The position numbers and the translations under genes were made by a program. A stretch of 64,000 bases of DNA, from NCBI GenBank assembly GCA_963969345.1, contig OZ017769.1, forward strand, positions 3,534,816 to 3,598,815. The letters run 5' to 3'. The DNA comes from Turbatrix aceti. Its lineage: Eukaryota; Nematoda; Chromadorea; Rhabditida; Panagrolaimidae. Shown in pieces: positions 4,141 to 50,995 of the stretch (position 1 is its first letter; each line of letters begins with the position of its first letter). The notes below the pieces were generated by a model. It worked only from the letters and a program-made list of their open reading frames with translations. It was not told the DNA's origin and ran no database searches.

Positions 4141-4159
4141 AAAACACCATAAAAAAAAT

Positions 4160-4679: not shown

Positions 4680-4691
4680 TGTGTTGACGGG

Positions 4692-18776: not shown

Positions 18777-20383
18777 TCACTTGCCTGAGATTCTGAGACG
18801 TCGGTTGAGATCGTCAGCGAGTCTCGATTTTATGTCGATCTGCACTTTCTGCGACTCGACGTGGTCTTCGAGCTGTCCGACCCTCGTCATCAGCTCTTCC
18901 ACCTTCCCAGCGAAGATTTGAGCATTTTTCTCGGACTCCTCGAGGGCGGCGACGGCAGCATCGCGCTCTGATTCGACTTCCTTCGTCAGGGCGACCTCTT
19001 TGGCCAGGAGTCCTCGAAGCTCGTAGACCTCCCGTTCACGGCGCTGGCCTTTGTTCGTGATTTCAGAGAGAGCGGAGGCGAGACGTTGTTTTTCGTGAAG
19101 CAGGCTCTGGACTTCAGCGGATTTCGCGTCCAGACGTTCCTTCAATTGACCGCCTTCGTCGTCGATTTCTTCCAACTCGACCTGGAGGTTTTGGATTTCT
19201 CCTTGGAGACTTTCGATTTCCTCTTTTTGACGGGATATCACGACTAGACGGAGGTCGGATTCGTCTTTTTTGCTCTGAAATGGGAAACATGGGGGTGAAA
19301 CGTGCAAAAAATGACCGTAAATTTGATATTCGGAGTAAAACTTCAAAGAATGGGGTATTTGGGCCAACAAATTGTAAAAAAACGTCACAAAAGCAAATAC
19401 CGTAACGAACGTAATTTTACAATGGGAAAAAGTAATCCCAAACATAACAAGTTCAAAATAGGTCACAAAAGTAAAAAGAACGTAATCTTACGATAGAAAA
19501 AAGAAGGCCAAAAAGTAACAAAAAATTGATGAAAAAACGTTACTCATAAAAGTAAAAAGTAATATAATTCACAAATCGATACCGTAATCAACGTAACATT
19601 ACGACATATCCCGTTTTTTCCCTTCAAAACACCAACCGTAAAGTCGCATTGAAGATCCGCCAATTCCTGATGTATTCGGTTGTACTGCACTTCAAGCTCA
19701 TTTTTCTCCGCCGACAGATTCTCGAGCTTCTTTCTCAGATCCTCCGCTTCGGTTCTGTAAGCATCCCTGGACTCCGAAATATCTTTCACCGCCTGCCGGA
19801 GGCTATTTCGCTCGTCCACAGTCCTGCTGTGCGTTGACGTGAGCTGCGAGATGTGGGATATGAGGTACCGTACCAGGTCGTCTCCCCGCACCCTCACGAG
19901 TGGTAGCTTGAGTTCACAGTTTGTCGAGAAATGGGAACGGTGCATAAGGTTGACGCTGCATCCACCACTCGAGTCATCGTCGAGCTCGACCTCGACCCAG
20001 TCGTCCTGGCCGGTGCTTCGGACAAAACCGACGACGAGGTCCAGGAGATTGTCAAAATCAGGGTTGATACGCTGCACCTTTCGGAGCGCGTCAAAATCAG
20101 CGCGGGTCAGTTGAAGCCGGTAGACCAGGTCGACCCTACGCTCGTCAAACACCTCGACGACGTAAGCCTTTTGGCCGTCCTTCGTGCTGGTATTGTCGAT
20201 GCGGAGGCGGACTTTTCGTGGTGATCTGAAAACGACGGGTGAAAAAAAGTTGGGTACAATAAAAACTCACAAATCCACAACTCGATTGCTGCTGGAGCGA
20301 ACTTTGACATTCACAACCTCGTCGAACACTGCTATGGGCTTTTTTTGTGGCGCAGAAATTGTGGAAACTATCCTTGAAGTCAT
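18777..20383 (-). CDS. sas-6: SAS-6-like centriole assembly protein
   Basis: Three exons, 20271-20383, 19637-20225 and 18777-19274, encode 399 residues. About residues 40-163 resemble the SAS-6 head: a beta strand (VRLRI), a conserved YRLQLTRADFDAL, LLDLVVGFV, then CSVNLM..SHFS..CELKLPLV, where Phe137 sits at the predicted hairpin tip used for head-to-head contact. It continues as unbroken coiled coil (many heptads of L/V/E/K) to the stop. SAS-6 dimers form the ninefold cartwheel that templates new centrioles. The family's long unstructured C-tail is nearly absent, making it shorter than human (657) and C. elegans (492) proteins. Identity rests on architecture and head motifs; another coiled-coil protein with a PISA-type head is the alternative. 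Confidence 0.7.
19304..19615. repeat. Dispersed intronic repeat (copy 2) in SAS-6 intron 2
   Basis: The reverse complement of about 19485-19610 matches 12140-12240 in TRAPPC8 intron 5 (shared ATGAGTAACxTTTTTTCAT, TTTTTTGTTACTTTT and CTATCGTAAGATTACG). The surrounding intron is made of further GTAACGT/ACGTTAC words. Confidence 0.6.
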
Positions 20384-23106: not shown

Positions 23107-26100
23107 ATGGCTTCCATCAAGCTGCCAAAGACATCGGATAAAGACTTCCGAATTCATGATTGGAACGATGAAGAATTACAAAAGTGGCTTGAAAAAAGTG
23201 TTCAGGTATTTCAAAAAGGCCATGTAAATGATAACGCAGACACCAAAACTTACAAATGCGAGCGATCTGACAGTGATACGATATTACTTCGGCTCTGTAT
23301 CATGTACTACGGCAAAAGAGATGTAAGTTTTGACGTCCTCACGTCCTCTTCTCTCACTGCCCACACCTGTCTCACCTATCTATCTAATTAGCATACCGAT
23401 TTGTATATAAGCATGATCCAAGAACCAATAAATGACTCGCTCCCTGACTCTCTCTCCTTTCATCCTCCCGCCTGTAGTCCGTTCCTGACGGCCTATACAC
23501 TGAAAAAAAAAACTGACGAATGAAAACGTCAGAATCAGTGAAAACGTTAGAAAAACTGACGATTTGCACAAAATCGTTAGAAAAACTGACGATCAGGGAC
23601 GTCATGAAATAACTGATGATTTTAAAGGAAAATCGTCAGTTTTTTCCTGACGTTTTGAGACAAGTACGCGTTTCACAAATCTTCATTTTTTTTCTAAGTA
23701 AAACGTCAGTTTTTTTCTGATGTTTTTGCCTGTATAGGTTGAGAATAAAATATTTGGCAATGTGCCACAAGTTTCTATCAATTTTACGCAAATTTTGCGA
23801 CGAGCTCGCATTTCGCAATGATTTTTTCTTGTTTTTCTCATTTGTATTTTTTGAAGTTCAGCTCATTATTGTATTTCTCGTTGCCGCAGTGTAGTTGTTC
23901 ATCAGTCAGTCCGTCTATCGCACTCTACTTTTTTTGGCAATGATCTTGAGAAGAACGGCAAAGCAACCCCGTAAGACGTTCAAATTACGGTTGACATCAA
24001 TAACAGTAAGTTTTTTTGGTATGTGAAAGAAAACACTGTTTTAAAGCATTTGCAGAGAGTATGCTGACTTTGGCAGCTTCGCGCAATGGCATTTTTAGAT
24101 TGTTAGCGATCTCATCTGCCGCAATGATTAGGGCAAGTCCTGAGATATCAAACAAGCTATCAACGGCACAAAAATGTTGATTTTTGGCACAGCTGCAATT
24201 GTTCGCAAACAAGGTGAAAGCACATGCTGTGCATTTTTGACAATGCATGAAGTGAAAACAAACTGTGGATTGATTATTCGCGTTTTACACTGGCATGTTA
24301 TTTGTTCTAATAAGTCAAACTGAAACCTTCAACAGCTCAAACAATAACTACTATTTATTTTCAGGTAAAGTCAGGCTATGAATGCTGTGGCTTCATAACA
24401 ACGACATTTGTCTACGCCTGCCAAGTTTACTTGAATCGAACCATCAACCGACGACAACGACAACATCAACGAATTTTTATTTTTTTGGATATAATTTGTT
24501 TTTTTATTGTATATGTGTATGTATGTAGAGATAAATTAATGGAAGCTCATGCTATATATGTATTGTGTATGTGCAAACCAGTAGGCCAAGATTGTACAGC
24601 AAAACAATAAACCAATATTGGAGACGATTTGCCAAGCGGATTCGGGTAAAAACGTCAGTTTTTTTCTGATTTCTTCAATCGTCAGTTTTTCTAACGAATG
24701 CAAAACTGATTTCTTCAATCGTCAGATTTTCTAACGAATGCAAAACTGACTTTTGTAATCGTCAGTTTTTTTCTGACGAATGGGGACGTCAGTAAAACTA
24801 ACGAAAAATCGTCAGTTTTTCTAACGTTTTTTTTTTCAGTGTAGCAAGTTTAATATCGGGTATCTCAACCCAGAATGACTGACACTAGTATCTTGTTTGG
24901 AATTTCAGATTTTACTTGATCATAAAAATACTTTTTTTAGGGTTACGCAAATCTTCTTCAAGGCTACAGAACAAAAGAAAAAAATCAGTTAAAGCCAATT
25001 ATAAAGCTTATCAAACAGCATTGTACTGGAGACATCGAGTTCAATGTTGTTTACGTTTCCGTTGGCACCAAGCAAAAGGATGGCACTTTTGCTAGCCAAG
25101 AAATTCCATGTAAAAAACCTTATGTAAAGACGTAAAATTCTGAAATAATCTTTAGTGCTTCGACTGGCTAATTCTGGAAAGACAATCGATGTCAGCGACC
25201 CGGGATGTCTCTATGAAAGCTACGAAGACTACCTAAACAAAAACAAGCTTCAACAGAGTGTCATGATTTATCCCGAAGGTGGAACGTATGCAGTCGGCGT
25301 TGTTAAACTCAAAGCCCGCGAATCACCGAGCTGTACTCTGGAAAGTACAATCAAACATGTCATAAACGTAACCGTAACTGTAGCATCGGTCGCAGCAACT
25401 TTTCTGACGCCAGCATGTATGTTTGGAGGGCCAGCGTTGGCATCGATGGCGGCAAGGGCTGCCGCTGCAGGATCCTACTGGGCGGCAACACTATCAAAAG
25501 TAGCGTATTGTGCTTCAAAAATTGGAACTGTGAATACCATAATCCAGTGCCTGAATCTAGGCCTTACTGGCATGAACATCTTTGAGAAGCTTCAGCGGAA
25601 TGAAAATTTCTACGCAGAAGCAATAAACATTCTAACCACTGCTATTTCGGCCGCATCATCCAAGATAACGAGTATATATACCCAAAAATATGCTGGTACA
25701 TTTCGTAAAGCTGTCTTGGATGGAAAAACATGGAAAGAGATTTCATCAAGTAAGTATTATTTTTCAAATGCTTGAAAACCTAAACCAAAACAAGCTTGGC
25801 TATTTAACTCAAAAAATATATCATTTGAAAAATTTTATTTTACAGCAATCAGTAAGTACGACAAAATCATGCTATTCACAGCACGATTAGTGCCAACAAT
25901 CCTATCTGTATCATCGCTTACCGTGTCATTCTACAAACTTCTGACAAATTCAAAACGATCGATGTTAGATATTTCGTCGTTCTGTATTGCACTCTTCATG
26001 CTCACCAACACGATAATTCAGCCATGGACGTTGAAGCAAATGTTTGATGCAACGCAAGATACCATAATTGGTGAAATTCGAAATCGCATTAAGGTAAGCG

Positions 26101-28266
26101 TACTTGAATTTGAACACACTACCTTATTTTTGGATTTTCAGACACCCGAATTTAAAGACCGATTTAATCAAGACTTAAAAAATGCTCCTAAAGATTCAAA
26201 CGAACGTGCATACCTTATCAAAACTCTTTTTCGAATTGAAGATATCGAAGCCTTCTACGGCAATATGACAAGAACGCAATCAGTTGTAACATTTAACAAA
26301 AACGGATTTGTGCTCAACCAAAATATAGAAATGTCCGCCGAAGCTTACAACCAGATTGGTCAAAGCGAAATCGTTGTTCAACAGATCATTGAACAAAAGC
26401 TTATTGGTGGTACAATTGAAAAAATCATGAATGAATATGATCCAACGCTAGCCCAAGAGGCGAAGGATTACGCTAATGGAGCCATGACATGTCAACAGGA
26501 ACAAGAGTTTTTAAGCAAATTGTCAAACTTGAACCAAAGCCGCAAAGGAAGACTGTTCGATGCATCAGCTGCGTACAAGGATATGCCAGATTTTTTGAAA
26601 ACTACCAACGAAGCAGAACGTAAACTATGCGGTAATAAAACATTAGAAGAGTGGCGAACAGCACGGCAAATTCTGGACAGGTAAAAAATAAAACTTAATA
26701 TATAAAGTTTAAATAAAAACGTTTAGAAATACGCCAAACTACGACCAAAAACTCAGTGAACTCAATCAAAAAATAGCTCATGCAGAAGCCATTAGAGACG
26801 AAAGAATTGCTTTTCAGAACTCACTGAAAGGAAACGGAACTACGGTGAGCAATGGGTTTTCGGCAGAAGTTGAAAAACAAGGAGGACAAGATTTCATCAC
26901 AAAAACCGACAACTTTATTAAAAACACTGCAACATTTTGCAATTCGAAAACAGAACGTCTAACAACCTACTACGATTCCGCTGTTGTTAAACACAGCCTG
27001 CAACATGCGTTCGGAGTTCCCGATTACAAGGATATCAAGATAAACGGTAAGCCCGTCTTCAAAGACTTGTCAGAAACCGAGCTCACATCTATCAGTGGAT
27101 ATCTCATGAATCCGGACAAAGCTAAAGAAATGGTCAACGCATCTGCTGAACTTTTACAAGACAAACAATGCACATGGCAGGGAAATTCGTCGGATGAAGT
27201 AGGCGGAGGAATGAAGTTGCTTGGAAACTATGTGGTTTGTTTATTCTTTTTATTTAAGCGAACCGATTTCGGAAAAAGGTGAAGGCAAAAGAACAGAGAT
27301 TTTGCGATGGAAAATGATCAGTGATATCAGATTTATCAGTTGTCGGATTCTGAAGATTCCGACATCCAAAACCAGTTTATCAAAAAAATTGAATTTTGGA
27401 AGGCCTACCAAAGGCAATCGTGACTTTGGTAGGCTCGCCTGCAGAGAGAGTTATCCGAACATTCGGCCGTATCATCCGATCCGAAACTTGGGATATCCTT
27501 CGGATGCAACTCTGGTTGTTTTTTTTCCGAGTGCACAGCGAAAAATTGTCAGCACATTTTTCGCTGTGCACTCGAAAAAATTTTCCTTTTTTGATTGGTA
27601 CTCAGAAAAGAATCGAGTAATAGGTTTCGGAGTCTATACGGCTTCGTAATTCTTTATAGCCCATACAGTGTAGCTTATTAGTGAGATAAAATTAAAACAT
27701 CAATAATTCTAACAATGTCAGATCTCGTTCCAAGAATCGCTGTTCCGAAAACCCGATCCGACTCGGTTTTTTAGCACGTTATCAGACGCTCGGGTTTTTT
27801 TGCAGTACTGATCGTGTTATATTTTTTACAGGCCAAGCGAGTCAAAGGCACAAACTTGAAAGCAGCGGATGTTTTATCAGAAATTGCAACCGGCAAGGGA
27901 GTAGAATACGAAGGAGTTCGAACATTCTTCAACGACGCAAAAACAAATGTAGAAGCTTGCTACGCAAAGCACCCTAATTGTCAGCAATATCGTGAATGCT
28001 ATACCGCAGCCGGACATTACCTAAAACATGATACAAATTCAAAGATAACTAATTTGCAAGCCAGCGATTTTGAACAGTATTTAGTTACCAACAACAATGC
28101 TATCTTTCAACCAGAAAATATAACGGTTCAACGATATTCTCAAGATGGTACATCGATTCAGACCAATTACGTCTACAATTCGTTGGGCTCTCGACGCTAC
28201 TTTGGTGTAGGCACTGCAATAACGGACGGCAGAACTACAACAACCACTACTTATGATATTAAATGA
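23107..28266 (+). CDS. Orphan 902-residue protein with hydrophobic middle
   Basis: Seven exons in phase: 23107-23322, 24941-25109, 25156-25749, 25846-26093, 26142-26680, 26727-27234, 27832-28266. The N-terminal 190 residues are soluble, with a run near residues 148-172 (YESYEDYLNKNK, then YPEGGTYAVG). Then come hydrophobic stretches at about 195-250 (VTVTVASVAATFLTP, Ala-rich), 334-360 and 371-388, enough for several membrane segments. The C-terminal half is soluble and polar and ends in a threonine run. The layout reminds me of the eukaryotic domain of unknown function DUF4781, but that is memory and untested. Intron 1 holds a Tc1/mariner-like element and intron 6 a hairpin insertion. The gene ends 323 bp before the giant SecA-like gene on the same strand, so the two may be co-transcribed. 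Confidence 0.8.
23498..24841. mobile_element. Tc1/mariner-like element in intron 1 of the orphan gene
   Basis: 1344 bp bounded by TA dinucleotides (23496-23497, 24842-24843). Both ends read CACTGAAAAAAAAAAC inward. Beside them are clustered subterminal copies of CGTTAGAAAAACTGACGA and its complement (23540-23660 and 24650-24830), which could be transposase binding sites. TA target duplication and the CACTG end fit the Tc1/mariner superfamily, but no transposase frame survives. The middle carries a 130-bp protein-like segment (24065-24194) shared with 57141-57270. Confidence 0.7.
24065..24194 (-). other. 130-bp protein-like segment, copy 1
   Basis: Same length and about 86% identical to 57141-57270. 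On the minus strand it is open and translates to a stretch containing CAKNQHF, SGLALIIAADEIANN and MPLREAAKV. The other copy reads CAKNQRF, SGLALIIMADAVTNN and MPMREAAKV. Identity stops abruptly at both sides, just after an AG at the 5' side, as for an exon boundary. It may be a captured exon fragment. Protein family not recognised. Confidence 0.55.
27235..27831. repeat. Intron 6 of the orphan gene with hairpin insertion
   Basis: Unlike the neighbouring 46-100-bp introns this one is 597 bp. It contains a hairpin at about 27529-27575 with 18-bp arms (CGAGTGCACAGCGAAAAA) and an 11-base loop, plus GGCCTACCAAAG/CTTTGGTAGGC arms at about 27400-27435. It looks like the remains of a small inverted-repeat element. 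The donor is GTTTGT and the acceptor TTTTTACAG. Confidence 0.5.
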
Positions 28267-28589
28267 TAAAAACGTTTCAGGAAATCATCTAAAGCAGAAA
28301 ATTTTCAATTAAGAATACACATACATAATTTAATGTTTCTTCAAGTATCAATTTTTTAAGCGTTAAATAAACATAACCTTGGTTAAACAATGATTGTGTT
28401 ATAAAAAATGTTTGACAACATTTCAATATTTCAAAATATTATAGCTGCATAATATGCTAAAGTCATTTGTGCCTCCTAACATCTGGTCTAATGATAACTA
28501 ACCACTGAGTAATGGTGAAATAAATAAATAAATAAATATGCTAAAGTTATCATATTATGATAACTTTCAGAAATTAATTTTAGCAAACA
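28267..28589 (+). promoter_or_regulatory. Intercistronic region between the orphan gene and the SecA-like gene
   Basis: 323 bp. It has AATAAA at 28366-28371 and a run of four AATAAATA units near 28518-28535, then two acceptors, AACTTTCAG (28570) and AATTTTAG (28582), just before the downstream ATG at 28590. No separate promoter is evident. The arrangement suits either an operon junction or a short independent 5' UTR. Confidence 0.45.
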
Positions 28590-31500
28590 ATGACGACTTA
28601 CACCCCAGAAAGTCTCGAAGTTGCAATCACCGTCAAAGTCTACGGCAGCCACGATGCAAGTTACGACGACGTACTAACCTCAACGTTTGGTGACGAAAAG
28701 ACAAACATCCCTCAAGCACTCATCAAACGAGTTCGGCAGCTTTACGTCAAACACCAAAAACTGATCGTGCAACATCTTGGCAAAAATTACATTGCAGATT
28801 TTGTCAAACGTGGTGAAACTTCTATCATCCAGCATTTTCAAGAATGCATTCACGCACAGCGGCAAGAAAACTTCTTTCACAGTCTGGAAAATGGTAAAGC
28901 TCAGAACATTGAACTCAGAATCAATCACCTAAGGCAACTTGACGAAGCCCAATTAGTCTTCAAGTTTTTCAGTCGATATTTTGCCACCCAGGTCAAAGTG
29001 TTTATCAAGTGCGACGTCGAAAACGAATTCCGGAATGCACTTCAAGACTGGATCAAAAGCGGTGAAATCAGTTTTGAAAATTGGAAAAAGCTAGACATCT
29101 GGCATAAAAATGGAAACAAATTGTCCAGTTTTTTGAAAGAAAACTGGCAACCCTCTTCCAAATACGATGTTCTCATTCAAAAGGTAAAAAAACTAGGAGA
29201 AAAAATCACAACGAATGAATTCTTAAACCCGAAATCTATTTCAATGCTCTTGGGTATGTTTTTATATATCAAAAATTAGGAACATAATAACTTTATTTGT
29301 TTTAGAAAAATCATTTGAGTCTCCAAAAATAACTGTGAACAAGAACAAAATAATAGTCGAAGGAAAAGCTGTTTACCTAGATAAAAACCTTGTTGATAAA
29401 ATTCATCGTAAGCTAAAAGACTGTGAAATCAAGCAAATTGAAATCTATGCAGCGTATTTTTGTGCTTTGTGCACTGATTTGATATTCTACGGTAAATTTA
29501 GTTTTCATTCCTCAAAAATCAGACAATGTAATTTTTTAGAAAAAAACGTTGTCATCTCGACAGGAAAGCTCCGGATCTGGAACAAGTGTCGCATTGACCT
29601 ATCCGGCAAGAGTTACGAATCGGAAAGCCGAAAAGCCGAAAACGCTAAAAATTCCACAGAAGACGGAACAAAAGGAGCTGATGGGAAACCCGGAGGATCC
29701 AGCGGAAATTTGACTATTCTTACTCGGTCTATCGTATGTATTACCTTTTTTAAACCTTAATAAAAAAATTTGCAGGTTGAAAGCCGTCTTCTGCAAGTAT
29801 ACCTCAATGGTGGCCGCGGAGAAGACGGCGAAGACGGTGGCGATGGCTACGAGGGCGAAGATGGAAAAGGCGTGACATCCAACGAAATAAATGGATTATT
29901 CAAGCACTACGGTAGCCTGTATTTCGGATTTTGGAGTACATTCAAAAATTATAATCCGGGCGATGATTGGACTGAACAAAGGCATTGCAGCGATAAGGAT
30001 AAAATGTACATCTACAAGAAGTACACCGATGACTACGACCGAGAGCTCCACTACAGCTACGCCGGCATATCCTATCACTGGTATTCGCCAACTGTCTATG
30101 ATACATTCATCCGAATCGTCGGTGGTCCAGGTGAGAAAGGAACCAAAGGCGGTGTAAATGGAGTCGGAGGTGAAGGCGGCTATCGTGGTGAATGCGTAGT
30201 CATGAATCCGGAAACAAAAGAAAAATTCAGCATTGATGTTACAAGAAATATGGGTCGGAACGGAAGAAACGGTAAATGCGGCGAACCCGGTAGCAATGGA
30301 AAAAAAGGGAACGACCTAGCAATTATTGATGCATCAGATACTCAAAAATACGTAATTGGCGATGACGAACACACGCTTAATCTGGAGTGGTATTCAAGTG
30401 AGGGTCCATATCGACGGTTTTTTGGATACGAAAAACACTACAACGATGAAGAATACCCTTTTGTGAAGTTCGAAACCCATGAAACGTGCCAAAGAAGTCT
30501 CGTAAGTTCGACAGCTTCAAGAACAACCCGAAACCAGTATTCAAAAGCAGTGGCCCAAAAAGCTGTCATGACAGAAGACGTCATGAAACACAGTGCGGAA
30601 GTCTTTGACGACGAATCCGCGTTCGTCGAAGAAGTCTCGCTAGAGTTCGAACAAGTCGACGAAGACGAAGAAGAAGAAGAAGCTGAAGAACAGACTGTAG
30701 AGCAGGTGATGATGCTTCGACAATCCGGTGATACAAAAATCACGGAATACACAACTGAGAACCTAAAAACTGTGAAGCCAAAACTAACCCCTGAAAGCCT
30801 GGTTGAAGAGATCAAAAAAAGTGGATGTTTTGGAACTGCCACTTCGGCTGCACAAAATCTGTTTGATCTGTTCACGCTGGAACTGGACTGGAAAAAACTT
30901 GAAAGCATTCGTTTCCCAACCCTGTTTCAAAAAAATCATTTCGTCCACGCCGTCGCTGAAAAACCACTGATACTCGCCCTGATCGGCCTGCGTCAAAATC
31001 AAATTCAATATGGTAAAACGTACGAGGAAATCCAGGAATTTGCAAATACAGTTGCATCGCGACGAAGATTGAAATTCGAAATGACTCAATACCAGGGAGA
31101 GCACACAAATGCTGTCGAAGATTTTTTGGCTACAAAAGTAACTGTAAAAGAAAGAATCAAACAAGAAAAGACTATCGAAGGCGTCAAAAAAGGTCCGCCA
31201 CTTGAATTGCCTCAAAAAACGCTCAACAAGTTAATCAAGAGTTTGATGTCCAACCAGTCAGTGTACTACACACCAAACGAAGAGCTTATTGCTTTGCATG
31301 CCCTCGTCCAGGTTCTTCCCGCGGAACTAAAACAATCTATCGATACATTTAAGCAGACAGAAATAATTTGGTGCAACGGTCAAGGCGAAAAGCTGCTAGA
31401 AAAATTATCCAATACTATAGTGAAAAAAGAGAAGAAAACGAAAACCCATGGTTAGTTTTTTAAAGTTTACTTAAAAAAACTATTTATACATAAATATTAA

Positions 31501-34500
31501 CTAATAAATTACTAAAAAAAACTGTTTTTAGATTTTGATCCTGCCGCAGCTATGTCTGGAGTATTTGATGAACCAACAGATGAAGAAGACAATGCAGATG
31601 AAACGTCATTGTCATCTACAACTAAATTTGTAATGACAGACGACATAAAAAAGAAATTTAAAGAATTGGTAGCAAAGATTGAATCCAAAATAGACGTCAT
31701 TCACCCTGGATTAATGCCGTTCCAAAACTACTTTGCAACAAACAAGAAAGCCATACCCAGATACGGTAAACAGCTGCCTGAACTACTCAATCCGCCTGAA
31801 CAACAGACTAATGAAAGCAGCGGATGGTTTTCCAGTGCGAAAAAGCTCGGAAGCAGTGCTAAATCGTATGCCTCTTCTTTCCTGTCTAAAGACGTAGGCA
31901 AAAGTGTCGAAGCAACGCTTTTTATCATGAAAGCATACTTCGTTGCTCAAGAAGTCCTACCCTTCAACCGGAAGCTGTACAACTGTAATATGCTGGTGCG
32001 TAGTGATATTGGCCAACCTAAAAGCGTCAAAACTTTCGTAAATGACATTGATGATCCTGAGTTTACGAATTTTATCGAGCAAATCAAACAACAGCCCATA
32101 AACGTTACAAGTGATTACTGTTCACGTGAAATGAAAAAGAAAGGAATGACATCGTCAGCTGTGCAGTACCTTCATTGTTTGGAGGAAAACAACAATATTG
32201 CAAGCTTTGTGCAATCCGGTCACCAAAAAATTCAGTGTCAGTATTTCTTCCAATCTTTGAATCCCCAGACAAGCGAAACAAAATTCATTTGGATTGACGG
32301 AAACGCAGCCTACAACGTCGAAGTCGATAAAGACTACCGCATCCTCATTGAAGCACAACGAGTTCTGACGGACAAAAGAAAACAAGCTATTGACCAATTA
32401 TTGGACACGAAAACGAAAGTACCTGATATGGCAACATTCTATCAATCAGAGCTCAAACAAACAGTTCAGCAATGGGTTGAAAGCTACCTCGTCGTTACTG
32501 AATTCAAGCAACTCATCCAATTTTTGTGTGCACGGTTTTTTATCGACGGATGTCATTTGAGCTTGTTTGAACTTCAGTTCACATTGTCAACTTTCACTCA
32601 CCTTTTCACTACGTACCGTGCAAATCTGAAATTCGTACAGACTCTTCTGGCATCCGCTTCACAAACCGACTTTGTGAACATCCTGTTGTTCATCCGGCTC
32701 TGCCATCGGTACGAAAAACAACTGGATTCAAAAATATGGAATGGCATTCAGCTCATCGACAACATTCGACTCAAAATTGTCCTCGGTATCAAGCTCGCTG
32801 ATTATGACACCGCAATCGAAATAGATATGCTGTATAAAATTATTCTCATGCTTCAACACGCATCTACTGGATCCGAAAAGCTGGAAAACCTAACAATGAC
32901 CATGTGGATTGACATCGCAGAAAAGCAAACATGGTCTGAAATTAGTTCTGTTTTGAAGGAATTCGGAACTGCTGGATACTATCTTGGCGTGCTCGACAGC
33001 AAAGGATTCCAGCGAGAACAAAAGATGTTGAGCGATGTTCTTCGAAATGTGAAATACGTTCCGGAAATGAATCTAGCCATGCTTACATTTATGCTTTGCA
33101 ATCGAGAAATTGAAGAAAGCCGCGTAGAAGCCAACCTCAAAGCATTCGAACGATGTTGTAAAAAGGGAAACAACTGGAAGTGTAACGCGATAGTGCCTTC
33201 GCAGAAACACGCCACACTCATCACAGACGAAGCATTGCAAAGAGAGTTCTTCAGCTTTCTAAATAGACAACCGGATTCTGACGGTGACGACGATGTAGAT
33301 GATATTTTCAACAGCCGAAAAATTAATGACCTTAAACGACTTGTTGTCGGCCAACATGACCAAACACAGGAGGAAAAAGCCAAGCGTCAAGAAACGGTGG
33401 CCAAATACTGTACCTATCTTGAACAGTTGGAGAAAAACAAGGCAACAACCGAAGCTTGCAAAATTCTGCTAGAATTTGACAAACATCTGAAAAAGTTGTT
33501 CAAAAAAACACTTCGAATAACTCAAAAAATGGCTGTCTTGTGCGCAGTCGAAGCCGAAGAACCCGTTCTCGAACAGGTGAACACAGGTGAAGGAAAGTCA
33601 TTTATCATCGCTGCCATAGCCATCATCAGGTGTATTCGAGACAAGCAAACTGTCGACATTATCACAAGCTCACCTGTGCTCGCCGAAAGAGATGTAAAAG
33701 AACTAGAACCTCTGTACGCTAAATTCAAACTACGAGTTGGACACAATTGTTCTGAATCTATTGTGGAGCGCCAAAAAGCGTACGCAGGCGAAATTGTCTA
33801 TGGCGATATCAGTCGTTTCCAGCGTGACTACCTAATGCAGACGTTTTACAAGAAAACAATTCTCGGTGGCAGAATCAGAGAAGTCGTAATCGTTGACGAA
33901 GTTGACAACATGCTTTTGGACAATGGAAACAATATTTTGTATCTCTCGCATGATGTTCCTTGTCTAGACATCCTTGAATCGCTGCTGGTATACATTCTCA
34001 GAGAAGTACATTCGCCCATTTTTAATGGTCACAAAAACAGCATGGAACACATGAAAAATCTGTTCGAAACAGACACAATTGTAGCCAATGTCTTGGAACA
34101 GGTATACGGCAGATTTTCGTTGCAAGACGCAAGAAGCTGTGTACCTAACGCCAATAATGAAGAATTGTCAAAACAGATTCACAACCTGCTCGTTAAGAAA
34201 AACATTATTGACGCCGACGGATACATACTTTCGTCATCAAAAGCTCAAATTCAGGCACTCTGCACAGAACTGAAGTCCATCAGCGAGCCGGCTACACAAA
34301 GGGTGTTGGCGGCGCTAACTATAGCAGCTGACAAAAAATGCGAATTCGCACTACCGACATTTTTGCGTCCATTCGTCAAACTTCACCTACATGAATTTGT
34401 CGAAAACTGCAAGAAATCAATGCTAATGGATGAAGATTACGAATACGTTGTCGACATCGATCGTACCGATTCAGGGACACAAATTGAACCGGTAGTGACA

Positions 34501-37500
34501 ATTGTTGACAGCAATACAGGTGCGGATCTGCCGACAACACAGTGGAACGGTGGACTTCATCAATTCCTGCAACTCAAACATGGATGCAGGATTTCTCCGC
34601 TGAGTTTGAAAGCAGTTTTTGTATCGAATGTGGCTTATCTCAAAGGATACAAAGTAATCAATGGTCTCAGTGGGACTCTTGGTTCTATCCACGAAAGCCG
34701 GACTCTTATTGACCTGTACGGAGCCGATTTGATCAGAATCCCGACATTCAAACCAAAAATGTTCTACGAACACGCTCCAATACTTGCAACAAACGTTGCA
34801 GAATGGACCAAAAGCATCTATGACGAAATCAATGATCAAATATCTGCCGAACGATCGTTGCTCATCATCTGCGATTCCATTGCTCAGGCAAAGCAGCTGC
34901 ATACAAACTTGCTAACATCGTACAAAAAAGAAACTAATAAATCCGAACTACAAAAGGAGTGCTTTGAAAACATCGCGACCTATCTTCGAAGCTGTGATGA
35001 ATTTGATTTTGAGAAGGGAAAACAATTGGAACCTGGACATGCGATTATTGCTACAAACCTGGCTGGGCGAGGCACTGATATCAAACTCAGCGAAAAACTT
35101 GTTGTGAGTTTTTTGTTCGAAAACCACAAAAATCAGTTTTGTTTTGTTTTTTAGAAAAACAGAGGACTCCACGTTATTACTGCCTTCATGCCAAAAAATG
35201 CACGCATCGAAGAACAAGCATTTGGTCGAGCGGCTCGTGCAGGTCAACCGGGATCTGCGCAGATCATCGCGTTGATCAAGGAAAAAGATGGCGTCAAGCC
35301 TTCAATATTTCATTTCAAAATGTACCGTGACAACATCGAGGTACAAAGACTTGCTGAACTCAAGGTGTTTTATGATTACCATACAGAAATCGAAGAAAGT
35401 TGTCTAGAAAAGTTCAGAAGTCATTGTGCAGACGTTCTCAGCAAGGTGTATTCTTCAAAATCCAATGACAATGTCAACATTCAGCGTCCAGATGAAGTCG
35501 TCTATTTTGCGCTTCTGGATAAGTGGGCCATGTGGCTTGACGAAAAAGGCCCTCTGATCAACCAATGCGCGAAAAACAACAATGAAGACGAACGCAGACG
35601 TGAAAAAGAAGCCATTATTGCGTCCGTCGATTTATTCCTAACCAACCATAAACTCGACATTGAAGAAGCAAAGAAATCATGGCTAGACTTTCCTCAGTCC
35701 CTGCTTACACTCGGTTTATACGAGTTGTGTAACAAAAACTTCAACACAGCGGACAAACTTTTCGACCTGGTCATTGAACGGGATTTGCAATTTTCTGCCG
35801 AAGCATACTACTACAAAGCTTGTATTCGAATGCCATCGTACAACAACACTGAAGGCGACCACATTAATGTAAACGATGCAGAAAAATTCTTTTCTTTTGT
35901 AAGTTTTTTTGCATCCTACAAAAATTTTTTATAAGGATTGATTTTAGGCTCGAGTACTACTTTCTCATCGCCTATCCGCTTGCGAAAAAGAAAGGTCAAC
36001 CGTCATGCAATTTGTTAACGATACAAACAGAGGAGCCATCAAATCTAGTGGTTTCGAAAAACAAAACGCTGTAATGGCCAAATACATCTCAGGCGTCATC
36101 AACAACATTGATTGGATCATCGGAGCACCATGCACGCCAGATATGTTTGTTTGCCAGAACATTACGTCAGACGATAGCGCAAGTTTGTATGACAAATTTG
36201 TTATGAACACCGTGATTTCGCCAATGGTTTACGTCAACTACAAACCTGAATCATGGCAGCTACGTGACCTGCATGACGTCTACGGCATGTCGGATGCAGA
36301 AATCAGGTCTTCGATTTACGAACTCAAACGGGATATGCTTACCTATTATCGGGATCCTGATGTGGCCGAGACATCAATAGACAACGAAAATATTCCAAAC
36401 GATAACGACAATAATGCTTTCCGACTGGCAACTGTTTCTGTCCTGCCGGATCGAATTCACCTTTCTAATCGCCAATCATTCTTCACTGAGCTCTATGAAA
36501 ACGGAGTTATCAGAAAGGTGCGTCATCTCAGGTACGCTGATCCAAATCATGTAACAGAAGTCGAAAATGCAATGAAGGCTAAAAATGTAGCACCAGTCGA
36601 ATTGCCGCAGAAGGGACACTTTATGACTCTTAACAACAGCGTGAAAGAAGGCCGTGTGTATTACAATGTTGCCGATGTTGACTCTCTCACGAATCCAGAT
36701 ATTCAAAACAAATTGCTAGACGAATTTATCGGAGAAGTGTTTTTGGAATCTCTGACGTGTTTTTCATATTTCACAAAATTTGACGGCGTGACAGCAGTTG
36801 AACTTGCCGAATACTTTGGAATAGACGTCGCTGGAGCCGCATGGATTCTGCAAACGCTCGAAGACCGCGGCGTGTTGGAGCACTTAATGGAACAAAGAAC
36901 GCGCTTCACGACAGACAACCAATTGTGGGAAAACAAGGTTGAAATCTACTTGACGGATCCAGACGAGAAGGAAGCAAGCGTTGTACAGAAGTACGCACAA
37001 CAGCTTCAGAATCTGCGTTCAATGAAAAATCTGCAGCACCTATCGATTTGGGTTCTCAAAAAAGTATGCAACATCGAAGACAACGATGTTCTTAAAGATC
37101 TGTACAATGTGCTGATGGAAGAAAAGCTAATCGAAGACTTTATTTTTGCAATTTTCCGGCTGAACAATCGCCTGGATGTGTCATGCCTGCCTGCTTCAAT
37201 TGCCAACAGTGTCGACTTCTATCTTTCGAACAAGTTCGCTTATTCATTTGCCCTCGAAAGACTGAGCATTGATATTGATTCGGCAGGCAGTGATCCTGAG
37301 TTTCCTGTATTTCATACAATTTACCTGCCGGAGTACCCATATAAGCAGTACTTCAACGACCTACAGACTTGTGGCTTCGTCAGTGCCTCTCGAATTATAA
37401 CAAAATATTACGAAGATCTGGATGAAGATAGTTTTGATCAGATGGACGACATTCTGGCTACAATACTAAAATACAAGTCCAAACTCCTTGATCAAACAGA

Positions 37501-40027
37501 ATACCACCTCGACTTTGTATCCCTGGAAAAATACATCACTAACCAGGGCATACCTGTTCATACCGAGCTCAAGTATCTATCAGATCGTGGCCTAAAAGTC
37601 GTCATGGGAGTAGCTGAAGGCAATGTAGCGTGGACGATCTTCACTAACGTTGCGGGAGGAGCAAGAGCTGTTGTCAGATCTGTGGTTAAAGGAGTCAAGG
37701 CATTCGGAAGCTGGTTGTACAATATTGGGTCAAAGGCAGCCAACTGGATCAACAATAATGTAATTGATCCAGTTGTCAATGCAATTGGAAGCGCCTACAA
37801 GGCGACAAAAAATGCAATCGTAAGCGGCATCACAGCGGTGACAAATTATATAACCAGCAGCAAAGCCTATCAAGTTGCAAGTGCTTGTGTCAAAAGTGCA
37901 GCTACATCAATTGGGAAAATAGCAGATGGCGTTGCAACAGTGGTCAAAACCGTAGCAAGTGGTGTTGCAACGGTAGCCAGAACCGTCGGAGAAGGCCTAT
38001 ACGAATTCGGAGAAATGACAGGCATCAACGAAGGTGTTCGGTATATTGCCAGAGGCGCCGCGGTCATTGGAAACAAAATTCAGGAAAGTGCGGCCTACAT
38101 ATCCCAAAAAGCCAAAAACTTGTACAACGGAGCAAAAGAAATGGCCGGTAATGTACTAAATTATATTGCTGAAACTCGAGTTATACAGTGGGCAAAGCAA
38201 GCTGCAAAAACGGCCATTGATGCTGCAAAATACGCTTATCGGAAGATGACGGCTTTCGTCAAAGCAGCATTTGAAAGCTATGATTACTACAATCAATGCC
38301 GAGTTTACGCGCGTAGAATTGCACTTCATGAAGGATTGGTAGTCGATGAATACACGATTCTCCGATCGTACATTGACGCGAGAGACAGTGCCGGACAAGA
38401 AGATACCAGTGACGACATTTTTAAACATGTGAGAAACACTTAAAACAAAACTAAAAAAAATTGTTATTTTTAGAAGCTTCAAAAGCACCTCGAAGCAACA
38501 CATGAAAAAGCGCTATCACGTCTTCGTAACGATATTGAAACATACATCCAGCGCGAACTCAACGACTACTGTGTGCGAACTTCAGAATGTGATTCAGACA
38601 TCATCAAACCCTTTGTCGAAGTTGCACCCGGTGTTTTGGCGTTCAAAATAGAACTCGAAGAAAAATACATCATCGAAAGCCACAAAGCCAAAATCGTATT
38701 CGTGCATCTTATGACAGAATTTGCGACAAACGATGCTCCGTTTGACAGCATGGAAATGCCGGACCTTGAATCCAATTTTTCATTTGATCGACTCGAAGGC
38801 ATTGTGCGCAAGATTGTCATTGACTACGCTAGCCATGTTGACATGCGAAAGGCAGATAATGTAAGTTTTTTATACATTTACAAACGAAAATGCGCTTACT
38901 GAATGCGGTACACTTTTTATAACAACTGACTAGAAAAATAGAATAGTGTAAGGCATGTATTCTATTTTTCTTGTTATGTAGAAGTTAAAAAATGTATTCG
39001 AAGAAGTTTAAAAATGCAGGCAATACACAAATTAAAAAAATCAAAATACTTACGTACCGCGACAAGTAGGGAATGCCGGAGTTAGCAGGCACATTATGTG
39101 TTACTGCGGTAGGTTGATGTATCGAACACACAATAATAAATCATACAGCGAATAAGTAGTCCGAAGCTCACAACTGCGCATGAGAACGATTGAAGAGACA
39201 ACTGACACGATTTGAACGATTTGAAGAGACAACTGTGAGTTGCCTAAAAATTGGCTTGGGTACTTTTGGCGCGCAAATGTAAGAACTCATGTTTGGCGCG
39301 CAAAGAGGGAAAGCGCGCGCGCTTTAGGAATACGCACTATTCGTATTTTTTTAACACCTTTTTAATTAAACAAAAATTACTTTTACAGAATCAAACAAGC
39401 ACGGAATCACGTCGGCTGACAAAAGTATTATCAGAGTTGCTCATCGATAAAATTTCCAACAGCTGCCAAATGATTTATGCAACGAGTCCGACATCCGAAT
39501 TGCTAACCTTCATGACCCAACTACGCAGCGCCGGCGAGGTTCCTGAACTCGCAGAATTTGATCGCGAAGACAAGATGCTCAAATATGGACTGTCCCAGTA
39601 CAACGCCCAGGTAGTGCAAAAGAAGCAAAACAACGCTGTACTCCATGAAATCGTCCGTTCTGTGCAAGCCGTCATCGACAACCGCGAAGTACTCAAGACC
39701 GCGATCAAATATGGTTTTCCTCTGCCAATTGATTCGCTCAAATTAATTCAACCAGCAATTAACAAGGTCCTTTTAAAGCCGGTTAAAATAACTGTCAATA
39801 AGAATTCGACGTATGGTCGCGACGGTGGCAAGTTGCTTTTGATGGACCACATCGGAGGGTGCATCTTCGTTACAAATGATGATTACCTACGCTATATGAA
39901 TGTCGGTGAACACGCAGGCGACAACTTTGTAAACGCGTTCTTGTTTGAAGGAATTCTTAAAGCTGGTATTACCAAAATATCCGGTGATCATGAATTATTC
40001 CGACAATCTTTAATTCAAGCTTTGTAA
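28590..40027 (+). CDS. Giant SecA-like ATPase with collagen-like and TPR-like regions
   Basis: Eight exons in phase: 28590-29253, 29306-29733, 29776-31450, 31532-35103, 35155-35898, 35948-38428, 38474-38860, 39389-40027, total 3529 residues. In order: an unknown N-terminal region; Gly-X-X collagen-like blocks at about 342-395, 480-503 and 523-545; an acidic stretch; then a full SecA-type motor. The motor has Walker A VNTGEGKS (about 1605), Walker [10 protein letters not shown] (about 1711), a cross-linking-domain-like part with [15 protein letters not shown] and LSGTLGS, motif [15 protein letters not shown] (about 2094) and the arginine-finger motif [12 protein letters not shown] (about 2136). 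A TPR-like segment follows (about 2310-2340), then Ala/Val-rich amphipathic helices (about 2917-3139) and a conserved-looking tail. Bacterial SecA drives proteins through SecYEG; here no SecY partner is known and the role is unknown. No signal peptide. Introns show it is nuclear, not bacterial contamination. SecA-like giants are reported in some other animals. Confidence 0.9.
38861..39388. other. Long intron 7 of the SecA-like gene
   Basis: 528 bp where the other introns are about 40-80 bp. It contains a hairpin (AGAAAAATAGAATA/TATTCTATTTTTCT, about 38930-38970), a repeated GAAGAGACAACT and two TTTGGCGCGCAAA words near 39258-39305. Probably an old insertion. No alternative exon is convincing. 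Confidence 0.5.
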
Positions 40028-46411: not shown

Positions 46412-46483
46412 TAGAGTCGGCGCAACCCCGACCAGCTTACAGGGGAAAATCGAGAATCAATCGGATTCAACTCACAGGTCGGT

Positions 46484-49400
46484 TTAGGCGATGTTGTACT
46501 TGATGTACGGTACCTCGACATCGTCGTCGTTTTCGTTGGACGCCGTAACTTCCAAAACGATTGCCTTGCGGTAGGACGGAATCGGCGAGCGTACGACTTC
46601 TTCGACGGCCTTGATGACGTCGAGCGCGAGTCGTTGACGGGCACGCGCGGTGTGGAAGAAAGCGTAGAGCAAAGACACGCCCGATGACATCATCGTGATC
46701 TCGCATCCGGTCTCTTTCTAAAAAAACCACCAAAACAACCTCAAAAACAACCCAAAATATCAAAAAACCCACAGCAATCCTGTCGATGAGCGCCTGAAGG
46801 GTCATCGGACCGTTAACCTCGATGCGATCCCACAGCGTGAATGTCTTGCCGTTGTACTCGCGTTTGGGGGCTCCGATGGGTTCGCCGAAAGCGAAGAGCG
46901 GCAACGCGAGATTGATGAAGGCGCTCTTGAAGCGCTCAAGCGTCGCCTTCTTCTGCTGGCCCTTGAGGTCGATGACCTTGTAGAGCTCGAGGCCGACCAG
47001 ACCTGCGACGACGGCGGTCGTCGTCGCGAGGGCGGGGATGATGCGGCCGGCGATCTGCTTCGTCTTCATGACATCGGCCGGAGGAATTTCGTAGTTCTCA
47101 GCGCGGAGGTTCGAGGCAGCAGTGATGAATTCCATGTGATGGTTAGTGTCGTCGTCTTTTTCGAAGTCGATGGGGTCGAGTCGATCGCGGATTGTGAGGC
47201 GGGCGAGGGCGAGTTTCAGGTTGTTGATGCGGGTTTCGGTGTCGTCTGTAACATGATACGATAATTTCATGGTTTTTTCTCGCAAAACAATTTTTTTTAC
47301 CATTTTTTAAACAAAAATTATTTTACGCAACACTTCTTTCACACATTTTTTTTTCAGCTGACAAATTTTAAAATTAATTTTATCAGAAAATTATTTTGTA
47401 TGATATTTTTTTATCATAAAAATGTATGTACAAAAAAATTTTATTTATAAAATTTTTTTACGCACAAATTTTCCAAAAAAAAATTTTCTAAATTTTCAGC
47501 CGCCAAAATAATTTTTAGGTAATTTTTTTTTTCAAATTTTAAGAAAAAAAATTTTAGGCACAAATTTTTTTGAGCGTAAATTTTTTTTTGGAAAGTTTTT
47601 AACTCTATTTTATAAAAAAACCCCGGACATACATACCTCCAACTTCGTTCGCCTGCTCAGCAGCTTCGCTTTCGGTGGTGGCAATCTTGAGATCGCGCTT
47701 GGGAGTAAAATTCGGAATCTTGACACCCTGCACGACCTTGAGAATCTTATTCTTCTCCGTGATAGGCTCTAGATGATACTGCTGGGCCCGAAGGATCGAC
47801 GCAGCGTAGACAAAGTCAAAGTGTGACTTCTTGGAGGGATCAAACTGAACAACGTGCGGGCATCGCTTGGTGCCTGACCAGAATTTGACGCCCTCAGCCG
47901 TCGTCTGATCGGCAGGGAAGCTGTAGAGCAGCTGGGAGATTTGATCGTGGTAGTACGACTGGAAGAGGAGGCGCGCCCACTTGATGCAATCTTCCGGAGA
48001 TTTTGGTCTATCGTCGAGCAGGGATCGCTTGACAGTCTCCAGCATTTCGATCTGCTGGTTGCCGTTCATTGCCTCGATGCGCTGCAGGAACTGGCGTTCA
48101 TCCGACACAAATTGATTCGTCGTTTCTGCCGGATTCGTGAACAAACCCTCAAAAACATCTCGCGCCCACTGAATCGTGTGCTGGATTTCGTAGGGGAAAT
48201 TCTTGAGTGTGCAGATGGGAATGTCCTTTTCTGGAGGATCGTTCGTCGACGAGTACGACTCCGTGAGGTAGGGGTAGACAACCTGCGTGTTGCCCTTCGC
48301 GCCCATAGTGCCGGATTCCAGCAGAGGAAGGAGATAATACACACAGCGACGATCCATGTACCGCCGAGCGTCGATGTTGTCCAGCGCGTTCGTCACGCAG
48401 TCCAGATCACCGAAAAAGTCGTCCGTGAAGACGCTTTCCGTGTCTTCAGCGACCCGGTCGGCCAGAGCGAGGATGTTGAGATCCTTGTTGAACTGTTTGA
48501 CAGCAGCGGCCGCCACTTCCGATTTCTTGCCTCCGACGTCGTTTCGACGGAAGAGGAACTGTCGGTTGAGGTTGGAGACCTCGATTTGGTCCATATCGGT
48601 GATCTTGATAACTCCCTTCCCGGTAGCGACGCCCATTAGGGCAAAGTTCTTCAGCAACTCGCAGCCAATGGCACCGGCGCCGACGACAAACAACGAAAAA
48701 TCCTTGATTTTCTGCTGGAAGTCCCAGCCGAAAATCGCGGCTTGACCGTCGTATCGGCTCTTGCGCTAAAAAAAAACCCCACAAATATAAACAACCAAAA
48801 AAAATTTTTTTAAATTAAACTTACAGGCTGGAAGTTGGCCGGATCGACAGCCTTGAGGTTGGCTTCCTGAATTGCGATGGGAAGTGACTCAATGGAGTCA
48901 ATGAACAGAAATCCGTTGAGGGGAGTGGTGTGGTGGGTGATGGATTTCATGACTTCCTGGGCGGCGATGCCACCGACGACCGAGGCGAGGGGCTGGACGC
49001 TGCCGGCGCTGATGTAGGAGAACAGGGTGGATTGGTGCTCGGAGACGGCTTCGGGGTTCGGGAGGAATGAACGCAGCTCATCGGCATCGGTCGCGTCGTA
49101 GGGGGCTGGTTTTCGGCCGTGCTGAAAAAAATTTGTAATTTTAGTTTGTATTCCGTAAAAAAATTTTGAAAAAAAACAACGAAAGATAATTTTCGTATAA
49201 AAAATTTTTTTTCGTTTTCAAACGAAAAACGCAATTTAGAAAAAAAGGAGAAAAACAATCGTACAAAAACGAATATTTTACGGAGAAAAAAAAAAGCTTT
49301 CATAAATTTTTTATCAAAAACAAAATCTAATAATTTTTTTTCGTATTTGTAAACAAAACTTTTTTTAAAAATATTTTTTATAAAAAAAATTAAATTGTGT

Positions 49401-50995
49401 TTTTGGCTTTTTTGGACTTCGCGGTCAAATTTTATGTAAAACAAACCTTAGCGATGAATTTCGAAAGCGCGATGAAAAGTTGCTGAAGCTGAGCAGGAGA
49501 TTCAAATTTCTGGAAATCCCAGATCATCACAGGGTCCTTCTGGAGTCGTACGTTGATCGGCTCGCTCTTGACCTCAAAAGGCCGTTTGACTTCGATCACC
49601 CGTCCACCTTCGGTGTAGGCACCAAAGTTCTTGGCGACATCCCCGATGTTGAACGAGTTCTTGCCTAAAAAAAAAACAAAAATTCCCTCTAAACACTTCC
49701 AATTCATAAAAAAACCAACCTGTGACTTCGATCCTGATGGGAGCGTGACCGTTGAGCTGGGTGCATCCCTTGACTTCGTCGAACTGAACGTAGTCACCCG
49801 TCGAGAGCCCGTGGAGTGCGCCATCGTGTGTGTGCACAGCACCCGTATGGATATCAATGTTTTCGAGCCAGATTTCCTTTGGATGCTCGCCATCGGCGTC
49901 GTCAACTTGAAAAGATTCACCGAGATCGTTGAACACGTATCCATAGAGACCGGTTGTGTCTGCGGAGATGAATACGGCACCGGCGGCACGGGCCCAGGCA
50001 TTGATCTGGACTTGGTCGTCGAATGTCGTGTCGGTTACGATGATCAGCTGAAAAATAGGGTCAATTGAACATTCAGGAATAAAAAAATCGTATTTTTTAT
50101 ATAAAAAACAGTAAAATTGTCAATTTTCGGTTAAAATATATAAAACAAGAAATTTTCGGTTCGAAAAACAAAAAAAACTGAAAATTGAACATCAAAAAAC
50201 GTTATTTTTGTAAATTTGCGATCAAACAAATATAAAAACGCAATTTCGAATAAAAAATTCTGTTTTACAATCCGGACTAAAAAATTTAGGGCTCTGAAAT
50301 CGAAAAATTCTAAAAAGACGCGTTGGGCTTAAAAATATCGTAACTACGGTTTCAAAAATATTGTTTTATATAAAAATTGTAAAACAGCCCATTTCCGGTT
50401 GTAAAAATATAAAAAGAGGCAATTTGGAACAAAAAGTCGATTTTTACAATTCTAACCTGAAATACGACTCTCGATACAAAAAATACAAAAAAATGACAAT
50501 TCAAGCTTTAAAGTACCGTAAAATATTAAAATTGCAATAAATATCGAAATACTCTCCCTGATAAAAAAAACTCACATTGTACTGCTTGACCTGCTCCTCA
50601 GTAAGCGGATCAGTGGTCACCTTGACGGACACGCTGTCGTTGAGCTCCTCAATCTTCGTAAACGCAGCCTCAGCCCGATTCTTCCCGACATCGGCTTCTG
50701 TGAGGTAAAACTCAGCCGAGAGATCGTTGTACGTCGTGAGCTTGGTGTCCTGCAGCGTGACGTGTCGAACGCCACCAAGTACGAGATTTTTCGCGACTTC
50801 GACACCGACACTTCCGATGCCAGAGACCAGCACACTCGCCGACCGAAGACGAAACATTGCCGTCTGGCCGAGGGCATAGCTGCAAGCAGAAATTTGCTGA
50901 GGTCCCATAAAAGGAGAAATGATGACTCACATTTGACGGGAATAGAGGTTGACATCGAGGACATCCTCGAGCTTCTTTTCACCGTGATCCGCCAT
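46484..50995 (-). CDS. uba-1: Ubiquitin-activating enzyme E1
   Basis: Eight exons in phase: 50931-50995, 50576-50879, 49720-50047, 49447-49664, 48825-49121, 47637-48765, 46773-47245, 46484-46717; 1015 residues, close to the usual 1050. In order: N-terminal [14 protein letters not shown] and inactive adenylation half ([17 protein letters not shown]); first catalytic half; active adenylation half with [12 protein letters not shown] at about 433, GKKSEVAA and the [17 protein letters not shown] motif; catalytic Cys at about residue 589 in PICTLKNFP; and the C-terminal ubiquitin-fold domain ending [14 protein letters not shown]1 adenylates ubiquitin, forms a thioester and loads E2s; it is essential and found in cytoplasm and nucleus. 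A TTTTTTTCAG at 51049-51051 upstream accepts either a leader or a 5' UTR intron. Confidence 0.98.

What the first reader, a model, noticed from the sequence alone, without database searches (positions are those of the whole stretch)
28590..40027. Giant intron-bearing SecA-type ATPase in an animal genome
SecA is the bacterial motor of protein export. Here a 3529-residue predicted protein, spliced from eight exons, has the complete SecA motor order: GEGKS, DEVD, the WNGGLHQ region, [18 protein letters not shown] and an [12 protein letters not shown] arginine finger. All catalytic motifs look intact, so an active ATPase is plausible. Nothing in animal biology gives SecA a SecYEG partner, so its substrate and role are open. 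Comparable giants are known to me from some other animals, but I know of none described functionally and none in C. elegans.
Basis: partly seen in the sequence, partly recalled or inferred. Interest (0 to 1): 0.9.

Follow-up and report, generated by a model that had tools for sequence, protein, structure and literature searches.

The report
Nematode giant with bacterial SecA motor
A nematode chromosome carries a family of giant, intron-containing genes built around the motor of the bacterial protein-export pump SecA, probably derived from oversized SecA-like proteins of intracellular bacteria and paired with genes of a second, uncharacterised family.

Summary
In detail: an eight-exon, 3529-aa model at 28590-40027 (+), GT-AG introns, no internal stop, all SecA motor motifs. 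Five of seven exon joins are supported by paralogs lacking that intron. The host is a nematode (145 exact SL1 copies); SAS-6 and UBA1 genes lie on either side, so a chimera is unlikely.

The interpretation needs changing. The genome holds five SecA_DEAD loci. The protein is not a SecA translocase: wing/scaffold and SEC-C domains were not found, and housekeeping SecA lies far away in the tree. Its motor belongs to a clade of giant SecA-like proteins (1,242-5,238 aa) from bacteria, largely of host-associated groups, and from phage contigs; one phage member ends in a nuclease domain beside an immunity-type gene. The nematode copies nest inside that clade.

New here: a DUF4781 gene lies near all five SecA loci, upstream on the same strand in four, divergent about 8 kb away in one. 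Giant SecA genes shared by insects and Wolbachia were published in 2013 (PMC3639933), so this is a new variant of a known kind. Function is inferred: a cytosolic ATP-driven polypeptide motor used in conflict.

The parts
28590..29253 (+). giant gene, exon 1 (ATG at 28590)
   Evidence: conserved in paralogs
29306..29733 (+). giant gene, exon 2
   Evidence: joins 1/2 and 2/3 crossed without break in the C4 paralog
29776..31450 (+). giant gene, exon 3 (glycine-rich, collagen-like stretches about aa 340-550)
31532..35103 (+). giant gene, exon 4 (SecA_DEAD and first part of the second motor lobe)
35155..35898 (+). giant gene, exon 5 (motif VI, TPR-like stretch by eye, no Pfam TPR match)
35948..38428 (+). 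giant gene, exon 6 (helical, repeat-like amphipathic region about aa 2860-3120)
38474..38860 (+). giant gene, exon 7
39389..40027 (+). giant gene, exon 8 and stop
   Evidence: join 7/8 crossed without an intron in two paralogs
33442..35364 (+). SecA-like motor core (about aa 1560-2183), interrupted by intron 35104-35154
23107..28266 (+). upstream DUF4781 gene, 7-exon model of 901 aa (23107-23322, 24941-25109, 25156-25749, 25846-26093, 26142-26680, 26727-27231, 27832-28266); co-duplicated with the giant
19547..20266 (-). flanking animal gene, SAS-6 N-terminal domain
   Evidence: E 1.5e-6, above cut-off
46470..50926 (-). flanking animal gene, ubiquitin-activating enzyme E1 pieces
   Evidence: UBA_E1_SCCH E 2.9e-65, ThiF E 6.8e-54

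Best explanation
The gene encodes a nematode member of a family of giant proteins built around a SecA-derived ATPase core. The family is spread among bacteria, largely of groups that live in host cells, and their phages. The nematode lineage most likely received it from such a bacterium, gained introns and duplicated it together with a DUF4781 gene, so that the pair now works as a two-gene module. Mechanism (inferred, not shown): the core is a cytosolic ATP-driven motor that grips and pulls or unfolds a polypeptide, as the two lobes of SecA do, but without SecYEG; the large flanking regions choose the substrate or the membrane, and the DUF4781 protein is its partner. The likeliest use is conflict, either defence against intracellular microbes or an intragenomic conflict. 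Odds of the steps: SecA-like giant clade 0.9; transfer from bacteria into the nematode lineage 0.7; functional pair with DUF4781 0.6; conflict role 0.35.
For: Motor motifs present in all five nematode loci. The motor is nearer to giant SecA-like proteins (253 bits to a 5,225-aa Megaera plasmid protein) than to canonical SecA (80 bits best in the PDB with a different program). In the 84-row tree housekeeping SecA of seven of the same genomes lies outside the 65-row SecA-like clade, supported at 100. Careful 39-row tree: four nematode copies at 100/100, with L044 and L055 at 98/89; bacterial giants without them as one clade rejected, p-AU 0.0012. dN/dS 0.146 against the nearest paralog. A DUF4781 gene near 5 of 5 SecA loci, and 5 of 9 DUF4781 genes by my grouping of 14 matches. 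Phage-borne L104: WHH/colicin-DNase tail and adjacent SMI1_KNR4 gene.
Against: No expression, ATPase or interaction data. No toxin or effector domain was found in the window protein. The homology to bacterial giants is firm only for the motor and the stretch just after it (about aa 1540-2450); N-terminal similarity to L058 rests mainly on glycine-rich sequence: hhalign 131 against 60 for the reversed control, and L058 dropped from the top eight when that stretch was masked. 0 of 12 genomes with giants had DUF4781, though nothing rang in that call's controls either, so the pair is not shown to have travelled together. No other eukaryotic sequences could be put in the tree, so direction is open. 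One paralog (P1c) is interrupted.
Confidence: 0.5

Rival explanations
1. The family is ancient in eukaryotes and passed from animals or protists into intracellular bacteria and phages, as the authors of the Wolbachia wBol1-b genome argued for their two genes.
For: Passages of PMC3639933: a strongly supported eukaryotic secA clade apart from prokaryotic SecA, with two apparent transfers into bacteria. PMC5062602 section 6 says phage WO SecA is more alike to invertebrate than to bacterial sequences.
Against: That tree, as far as the passages show, did not hold the Rickettsiales, Legionellales and Amoebophilaceae giants found here. In our tree the nematode rows are nested among bacterial ones, but no other eukaryote is in it, and the tested clade was named after a first tree had been seen.
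Confidence: 0.2
2. Selfish toxin-antidote pair: one gene of the pair harms, the other protects, which keeps the two linked.
For: Tight linkage through duplications; phage relatives look like toxins with a neighbouring immunity gene; five copies on three contigs.
Against: No toxin domain found; purifying selection along the gene is what a domesticated host gene would show too; DUF4781 also occurs without SecA at four other places.
Confidence: 0.15
3. A true SecA export motor working in an animal cell, for instance on an organelle or symbiont membrane.
For: Walker A, DEVD, motif V and VI intact.
Against: SecA_SW and SEC-C not found while the E. coli control has both; far below equivalog cut-offs; separate clade.
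Confidence: 0.03
4. Contamination or chimeric assembly.
For: Bacterial-type protein in an animal contig.
Against: GT-AG introns, animal genes on both sides, five related loci on three chromosome-scale contigs.
Confidence: 0.01
5. A relic without function.
For: Paralog P1c carries an interruption of about 6.9 kb in its motor exon.
Against: 3529 codons open in the window copy; dN/dS 0.146 (NG86, about 3,500 codons) against that very paralog.
Confidence: 0.06

Closest known systems
Giant secA-domain genes of Wolbachia wBol1-b (wBol1_1091, wBol1_1092) and their insect and Daphnia homologs (PMC3639933, passages read)
   Same: Very long proteins with a SecA domain, shared between animals and intracellular bacteria, apart from housekeeping SecA; wBol1_1092 is 11,829 nt and under purifying selection.
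   Different: [quoted passage not shown] here seven introns are modelled. Nematode, five loci, DUF4781 neighbour. Their sequences were not in our tree, so kinship within the family is untested.
SecA-like giants of bacteria: Megaera polyxenophila plasmid protein (5,225 aa), Bandiella woodruffii (2,966 aa), Legionella geestiana (2,947 aa), Francisellaceae L058, Legionellales L055
   Same: Same motor clade, motif variants such as [14 protein letters not shown] and [11 protein letters not shown]; a region after the core that aligns to the TPR-bearing region of L055 and L058.
   Different: No introns; diverse ends, such as a peptidase M23 tail in L058; no DUF4781 found in the 12 genomes searched.
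Phage-borne SecA-like polymorphic toxins (L104, L105; IMG/VR contigs)
   Same: Same motor clade; about 3,555 aa.
   Different: L104 has a WHH nuclease tail and a SUKH-type gene beside it; L105 has another tail. The nematode protein has no recognised toxin tail, and the window and C4 copies share a C-terminal region by eye.
SecA preprotein translocase (bacteria, plastids)
   Same: DEAD-type two-lobe motor with GEGKS, DEVD, GLHQ region, AGRGTD and motif VI.
   Different: No wing/scaffold or SEC-C domain detected; 27-ish percent core identity; four times longer.
DUF4781 proteins (PF16013)
   Same: The upstream gene passes the Pfam cut-off.
   Different: Function unknown; passages place DUF4781 with a Death domain in a highly polymorphic snail gene (PMC10875847) and with HopBF1 in a Burkholderia protein inside T3SS clusters (PMC12580581).

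Membership tests
SecA preprotein translocase | First motor lobe (SecA_DEAD) with intact Walker A and B | tested here: met
   87.8 bits against cut-off 24.6; motifs
SecA preprotein translocase | Second motor lobe (P-loop_SecA) | tested here: met
   36.7 bits against cut-off 27 in the spliced segment; single exons fell below it
SecA preprotein translocase | Preprotein cross-linking domain | tested here: inconclusive
   24.1 bits with exon 4 alone, 20.3 in the spliced segment; cut-off 23.5
SecA preprotein translocase | Wing and scaffold domain (SecA_SW) | tested here: not met
   no match up to E 1 in an 878-aa spliced segment or exon 6; E. coli control E 2.1e-72
SecA preprotein translocase | SEC-C motif | tested here: not met
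   no match in the segments given; E. coli control E 0.0004
SecA preprotein translocase | Equivalog-level score over the full model | tested here: not met
   exon 4: 122.6 bits against 814; the spliced protein was not run against NCBIfam
SecA preprotein translocase | SecYEG partner | not tested
   no search made
Giant SecA-like clade | Motor core falls in the clade | tested here: met
   41-row clade at 100; 28-row clade at 100/100
Giant SecA-like clade | Core inside a protein far longer than SecA | tested here: met
   3529 aa; 37 bacterial or phage rows of the clade have open frames of 1,242-5,238 aa, several cut by contig ends
Giant SecA-like clade | TPR just after the core (L055, L058, L132) | tested here: inconclusive
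   region aligns but no Pfam TPR match in the window protein
Polymorphic toxin | C-terminal toxin domain with an adjacent immunity gene | tested here: not met
   no Pfam match in exons 7 and 8; no gene after 40027 was tested as immunity gene
DUF4781 (upstream gene) | Pfam gathering score | tested here: met
   63.1 bits against 27.9, E 2.5e-17

The most novel reading that the evidence does not exclude
Nematodes have turned a SecA-motor giant of intracellular bacteria or their phages into a two-gene animal conflict system: the SecA-like motor threads or unfolds a foreign or toxic polypeptide, and the DUF4781 protein acts as its sensor, membrane partner or antidote. The pairing is older than the split of the C4 copy from the others.
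Probability: 0.3. Interest if true: 0.85.

Novelty: new variant of a known kind. Interest (0 to 1): 0.62.

Why it matters
It shows a SecA-type motor kept as a spliced, multi-copy gene family in a nematode, gives it a candidate partner (DUF4781), and ties both to giant SecA-like proteins of intracellular bacteria and phages, at least one of which looks like a toxin. That makes a neglected observation, giant secA genes in insects and Wolbachia, testable: which polypeptide does a SecA motor move without SecYEG, and is this a defence or a selfish module?

Tried and rejected
SecA translocase: rejected on domains, scores and tree. Contamination: rejected. Single gene: rejected. Polymorphic-toxin membership of the window protein: no toxin tail found. 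Structure: two AlphaFold2 jobs gave mean pLDDT 40.2 and 39.3, too poor for a fold search, so none was made. N-terminal homology to L058: blastp E 2.7e-9, 1.2e-4 with composition correction, gone with SEG filtering, reversed control 0.002, so left as possible only. C-terminal amphipathic region: best hhalign 51.2 against 34.5 for the reversed control, over 43 giants, suggestive only. A resemblance of the C-terminus of the C4 copy to an OTU protease was by eye and recalled; Pfam gave no such match. Species: not identified. Literature: nine searches; apart from the papers cited, only listings were seen. I saw no paper on giant SecA genes in nematodes, which cover only the held open library and the listed rows.
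Full report
Observation. The eight-exon model is sound: 3529 aa, GT-AG introns, all six named motifs in order, SecA_DEAD at E 9.9e-25. Paralogs without the respective intron support joins 1/2, 2/3, 4/5, 5/6 and 7/8; joins 3/4 and 6/7 have only their splice sites and frame. No transcript data were at hand.

Host. The window lies at C5:3534816-3598815 of a 59.9 Mb, 28-contig genome. The nematode spliced leader SL1 (sequence recalled) occurs exactly 145 times, and the pattern read backwards 0 times. SAS-6 (19547-20266) and ubiquitin E1 (46470-50926) genes lie on either side. Species not identified.

A family in the genome. PF07517 rings at five places: C4, C5 (this one) and three on C1 (the tool calls such counts lower bounds). 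tblastn of the 3529-aa protein shows colinear copies: P1c at 51-89% identity in 150-aa bins, P1b and P1a mostly 40-70%, and P4 mostly 20-50% (bins with under 20 aligned residues set aside). Motor motifs are kept in all five (one P1b row is an overlay artefact, its DEVD is seen). P1c has an interruption of about 6.9 kb in its motor exon, holding sequence that also occurs at window 1755-4066. dN/dS between window gene and P1c is 0.146 (NG86; 3,507 codons, a few counted twice where aligned pieces overlap); dS to P1a is 3.2, saturated, and to P1b could not be computed.

Not a translocase. In the same Pfam scan an E. coli SecA shows SecA_SW (E 2.1e-72) and SEC-C; an 878-aa spliced window segment and exon 6 show neither up to E 1. 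NCBIfam SecA models reach at most 122.6 bits with exon 4, against cut-offs of 725 or more for the SecA models. No segment passes a hydropathy cut-off of 1.6 over 19 residues, so no classical membrane helix is predicted by that crude test.

Relatives. tblastn against 72,556 plasmid records found 122; the best was a Megaera plasmid (E 1e-50, annotated SecA-like domain protein), then Bandiella (7e-33); of the 40 rows listed no other was better than 2e-20. Against 50,697 phage records: 19, best 1e-20. These two and a Legionella geestiana protein are 5,225, 2,966 and 2,947 aa. A scan of genome contigs gave 255 relatives, of which the best 80 were kept: the top rows are Rickettsiaceae, Rickettsia, Orientia, other Rickettsiales, Legionellaceae, Amoebophilaceae; others are MAGs of unknown lifestyle, and lower rows are ordinary SecA of many phyla. 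In one order-level sample around a Rickettsia genome, 17 of 174 genomes have a match better than 1e-50; most of the rest match near 1e-30 with frames of about 800-1,000 aa, the size of housekeeping SecA, and 9 have none.

Tree. 84 of 108 extracted cores were used (24 dropped as duplicates, fragments or near-redundant rows; P1c not included because of its interruption). A 65-row SecA-like clade (100) excludes housekeeping SecA, including that of seven genomes searched for it. Inside, a 41-row clade (100) holds 37 bacterial or phage rows and the four nematode rows. With 39 rows and the careful method, the nematode rows group at 100/100, with L044 (unnamed bacterium) and L055 (Legionellales MAG) at 98/89, and with L126 (plasmid-sized contig of a Rickettsia endosymbiont of Culicoides) at 100/99; forcing the 24 bacterial giants together without them is rejected (p-AU 0.0012), the group having been named after the first tree. 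No other eukaryote could be included.

What the relatives look like. L104, from a viral-contig collection, ends in a WHH/colicin-DNase domain and is followed by an SMI1_KNR4 gene; L105, with a nearly identical core, ends differently by the listed translations and shows no known tail or neighbour family. This is the pattern of polymorphic toxins (recalled from PMC3482391, of which passages were seen). Neighbouring genes look like terminase and portal genes to me; no family search was made on them. L058 ends in a peptidase M23 domain.

Partner. Directly upstream, 23107-28266, is a gene modelled with seven exons and 901 aa that passes the DUF4781 cut-off. Pieces of it are found directly upstream of P1a, P1b and P1c on the same strand. 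PF16013 gives 14 matches in the genome, by my grouping nine genes: one near each of the five SecA loci (the C4 one on the other strand, about 8 kb away), one on C2 and three on C6. With nine such genes in 60 Mb, one within 10 kb of a given place by chance is about 0.003 (own arithmetic); the C1 and C5 pairs may be one duplicated block, but the C4 pair is diverged. The gap between the two genes in the window is 323 nt, which would fit a nematode operon (inference). 12 genomes with bacterial giants gave no DUF4781, but that call's controls did not ring either.

Mechanism. Shown: an intact motor sequence under purifying selection, and linkage. From established knowledge of SecA: the two lobes clamp and move polypeptide with ATP. 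Inferred: a soluble polypeptide motor without SecYEG, flanking regions for targeting, DUF4781 as partner, role in conflict. The last rests on the relatives and on passages that place DUF4781 with a Death domain in a polymorphic snail gene (PMC10875847) and in a Burkholderia T3SS-cluster protein (PMC12580581); it is a lead, not a test.

Known or new. Giant secA genes shared by Wolbachia wBol1-b and insects were described in 2013 with the opposite direction of transfer argued (PMC3639933, passages), and phage WO SecA in 2016 (PMC5062602, section 6). New here as far as my searches go: a spliced nematode family, its DUF4781 neighbour, and its nesting among bacterial giants.

Noticed in passing
L104 and L105, ORFs at 4141-14805 and 4144-14814: Viral-contig giants with nearly the same SecA-like core but different C-terminal tails; L104 has a WHH/colicin-DNase tail and a following SMI1_KNR4 gene, a polymorphic-toxin pattern.
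   Followed up: partly
G000:C1:12703771-12710665 (paralog P1c): Motor exon interrupted by about 6.9 kb, with tRNA-like borders by eye and sequence that also occurs at window 1755-4066.
   Followed up: partly
G000:C6:4860731-4877540: Three near-identical DUF4781 copies in tandem on the minus strand without a SecA match; another DUF4781 gene at C2:6566303-6567446.
   Followed up: no
window 23500-24830: Long first intron of the DUF4781 gene is full of short palindromic repeats, perhaps a mobile element.
   Followed up: no
window 12289-16257: Repeats shared with the P1b region of C1.
   Followed up: no
window 26001-40000: AT skew of 0.11 to 0.24 on the + strand over the two genes; the other 2-kb windows are all below 0.16.
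   Followed up: no
L058:3505-14694: Francisellaceae MAG giant that shares a glycine-rich N-terminal stretch with the nematode protein and ends in a peptidase M23 domain.
   Followed up: partly
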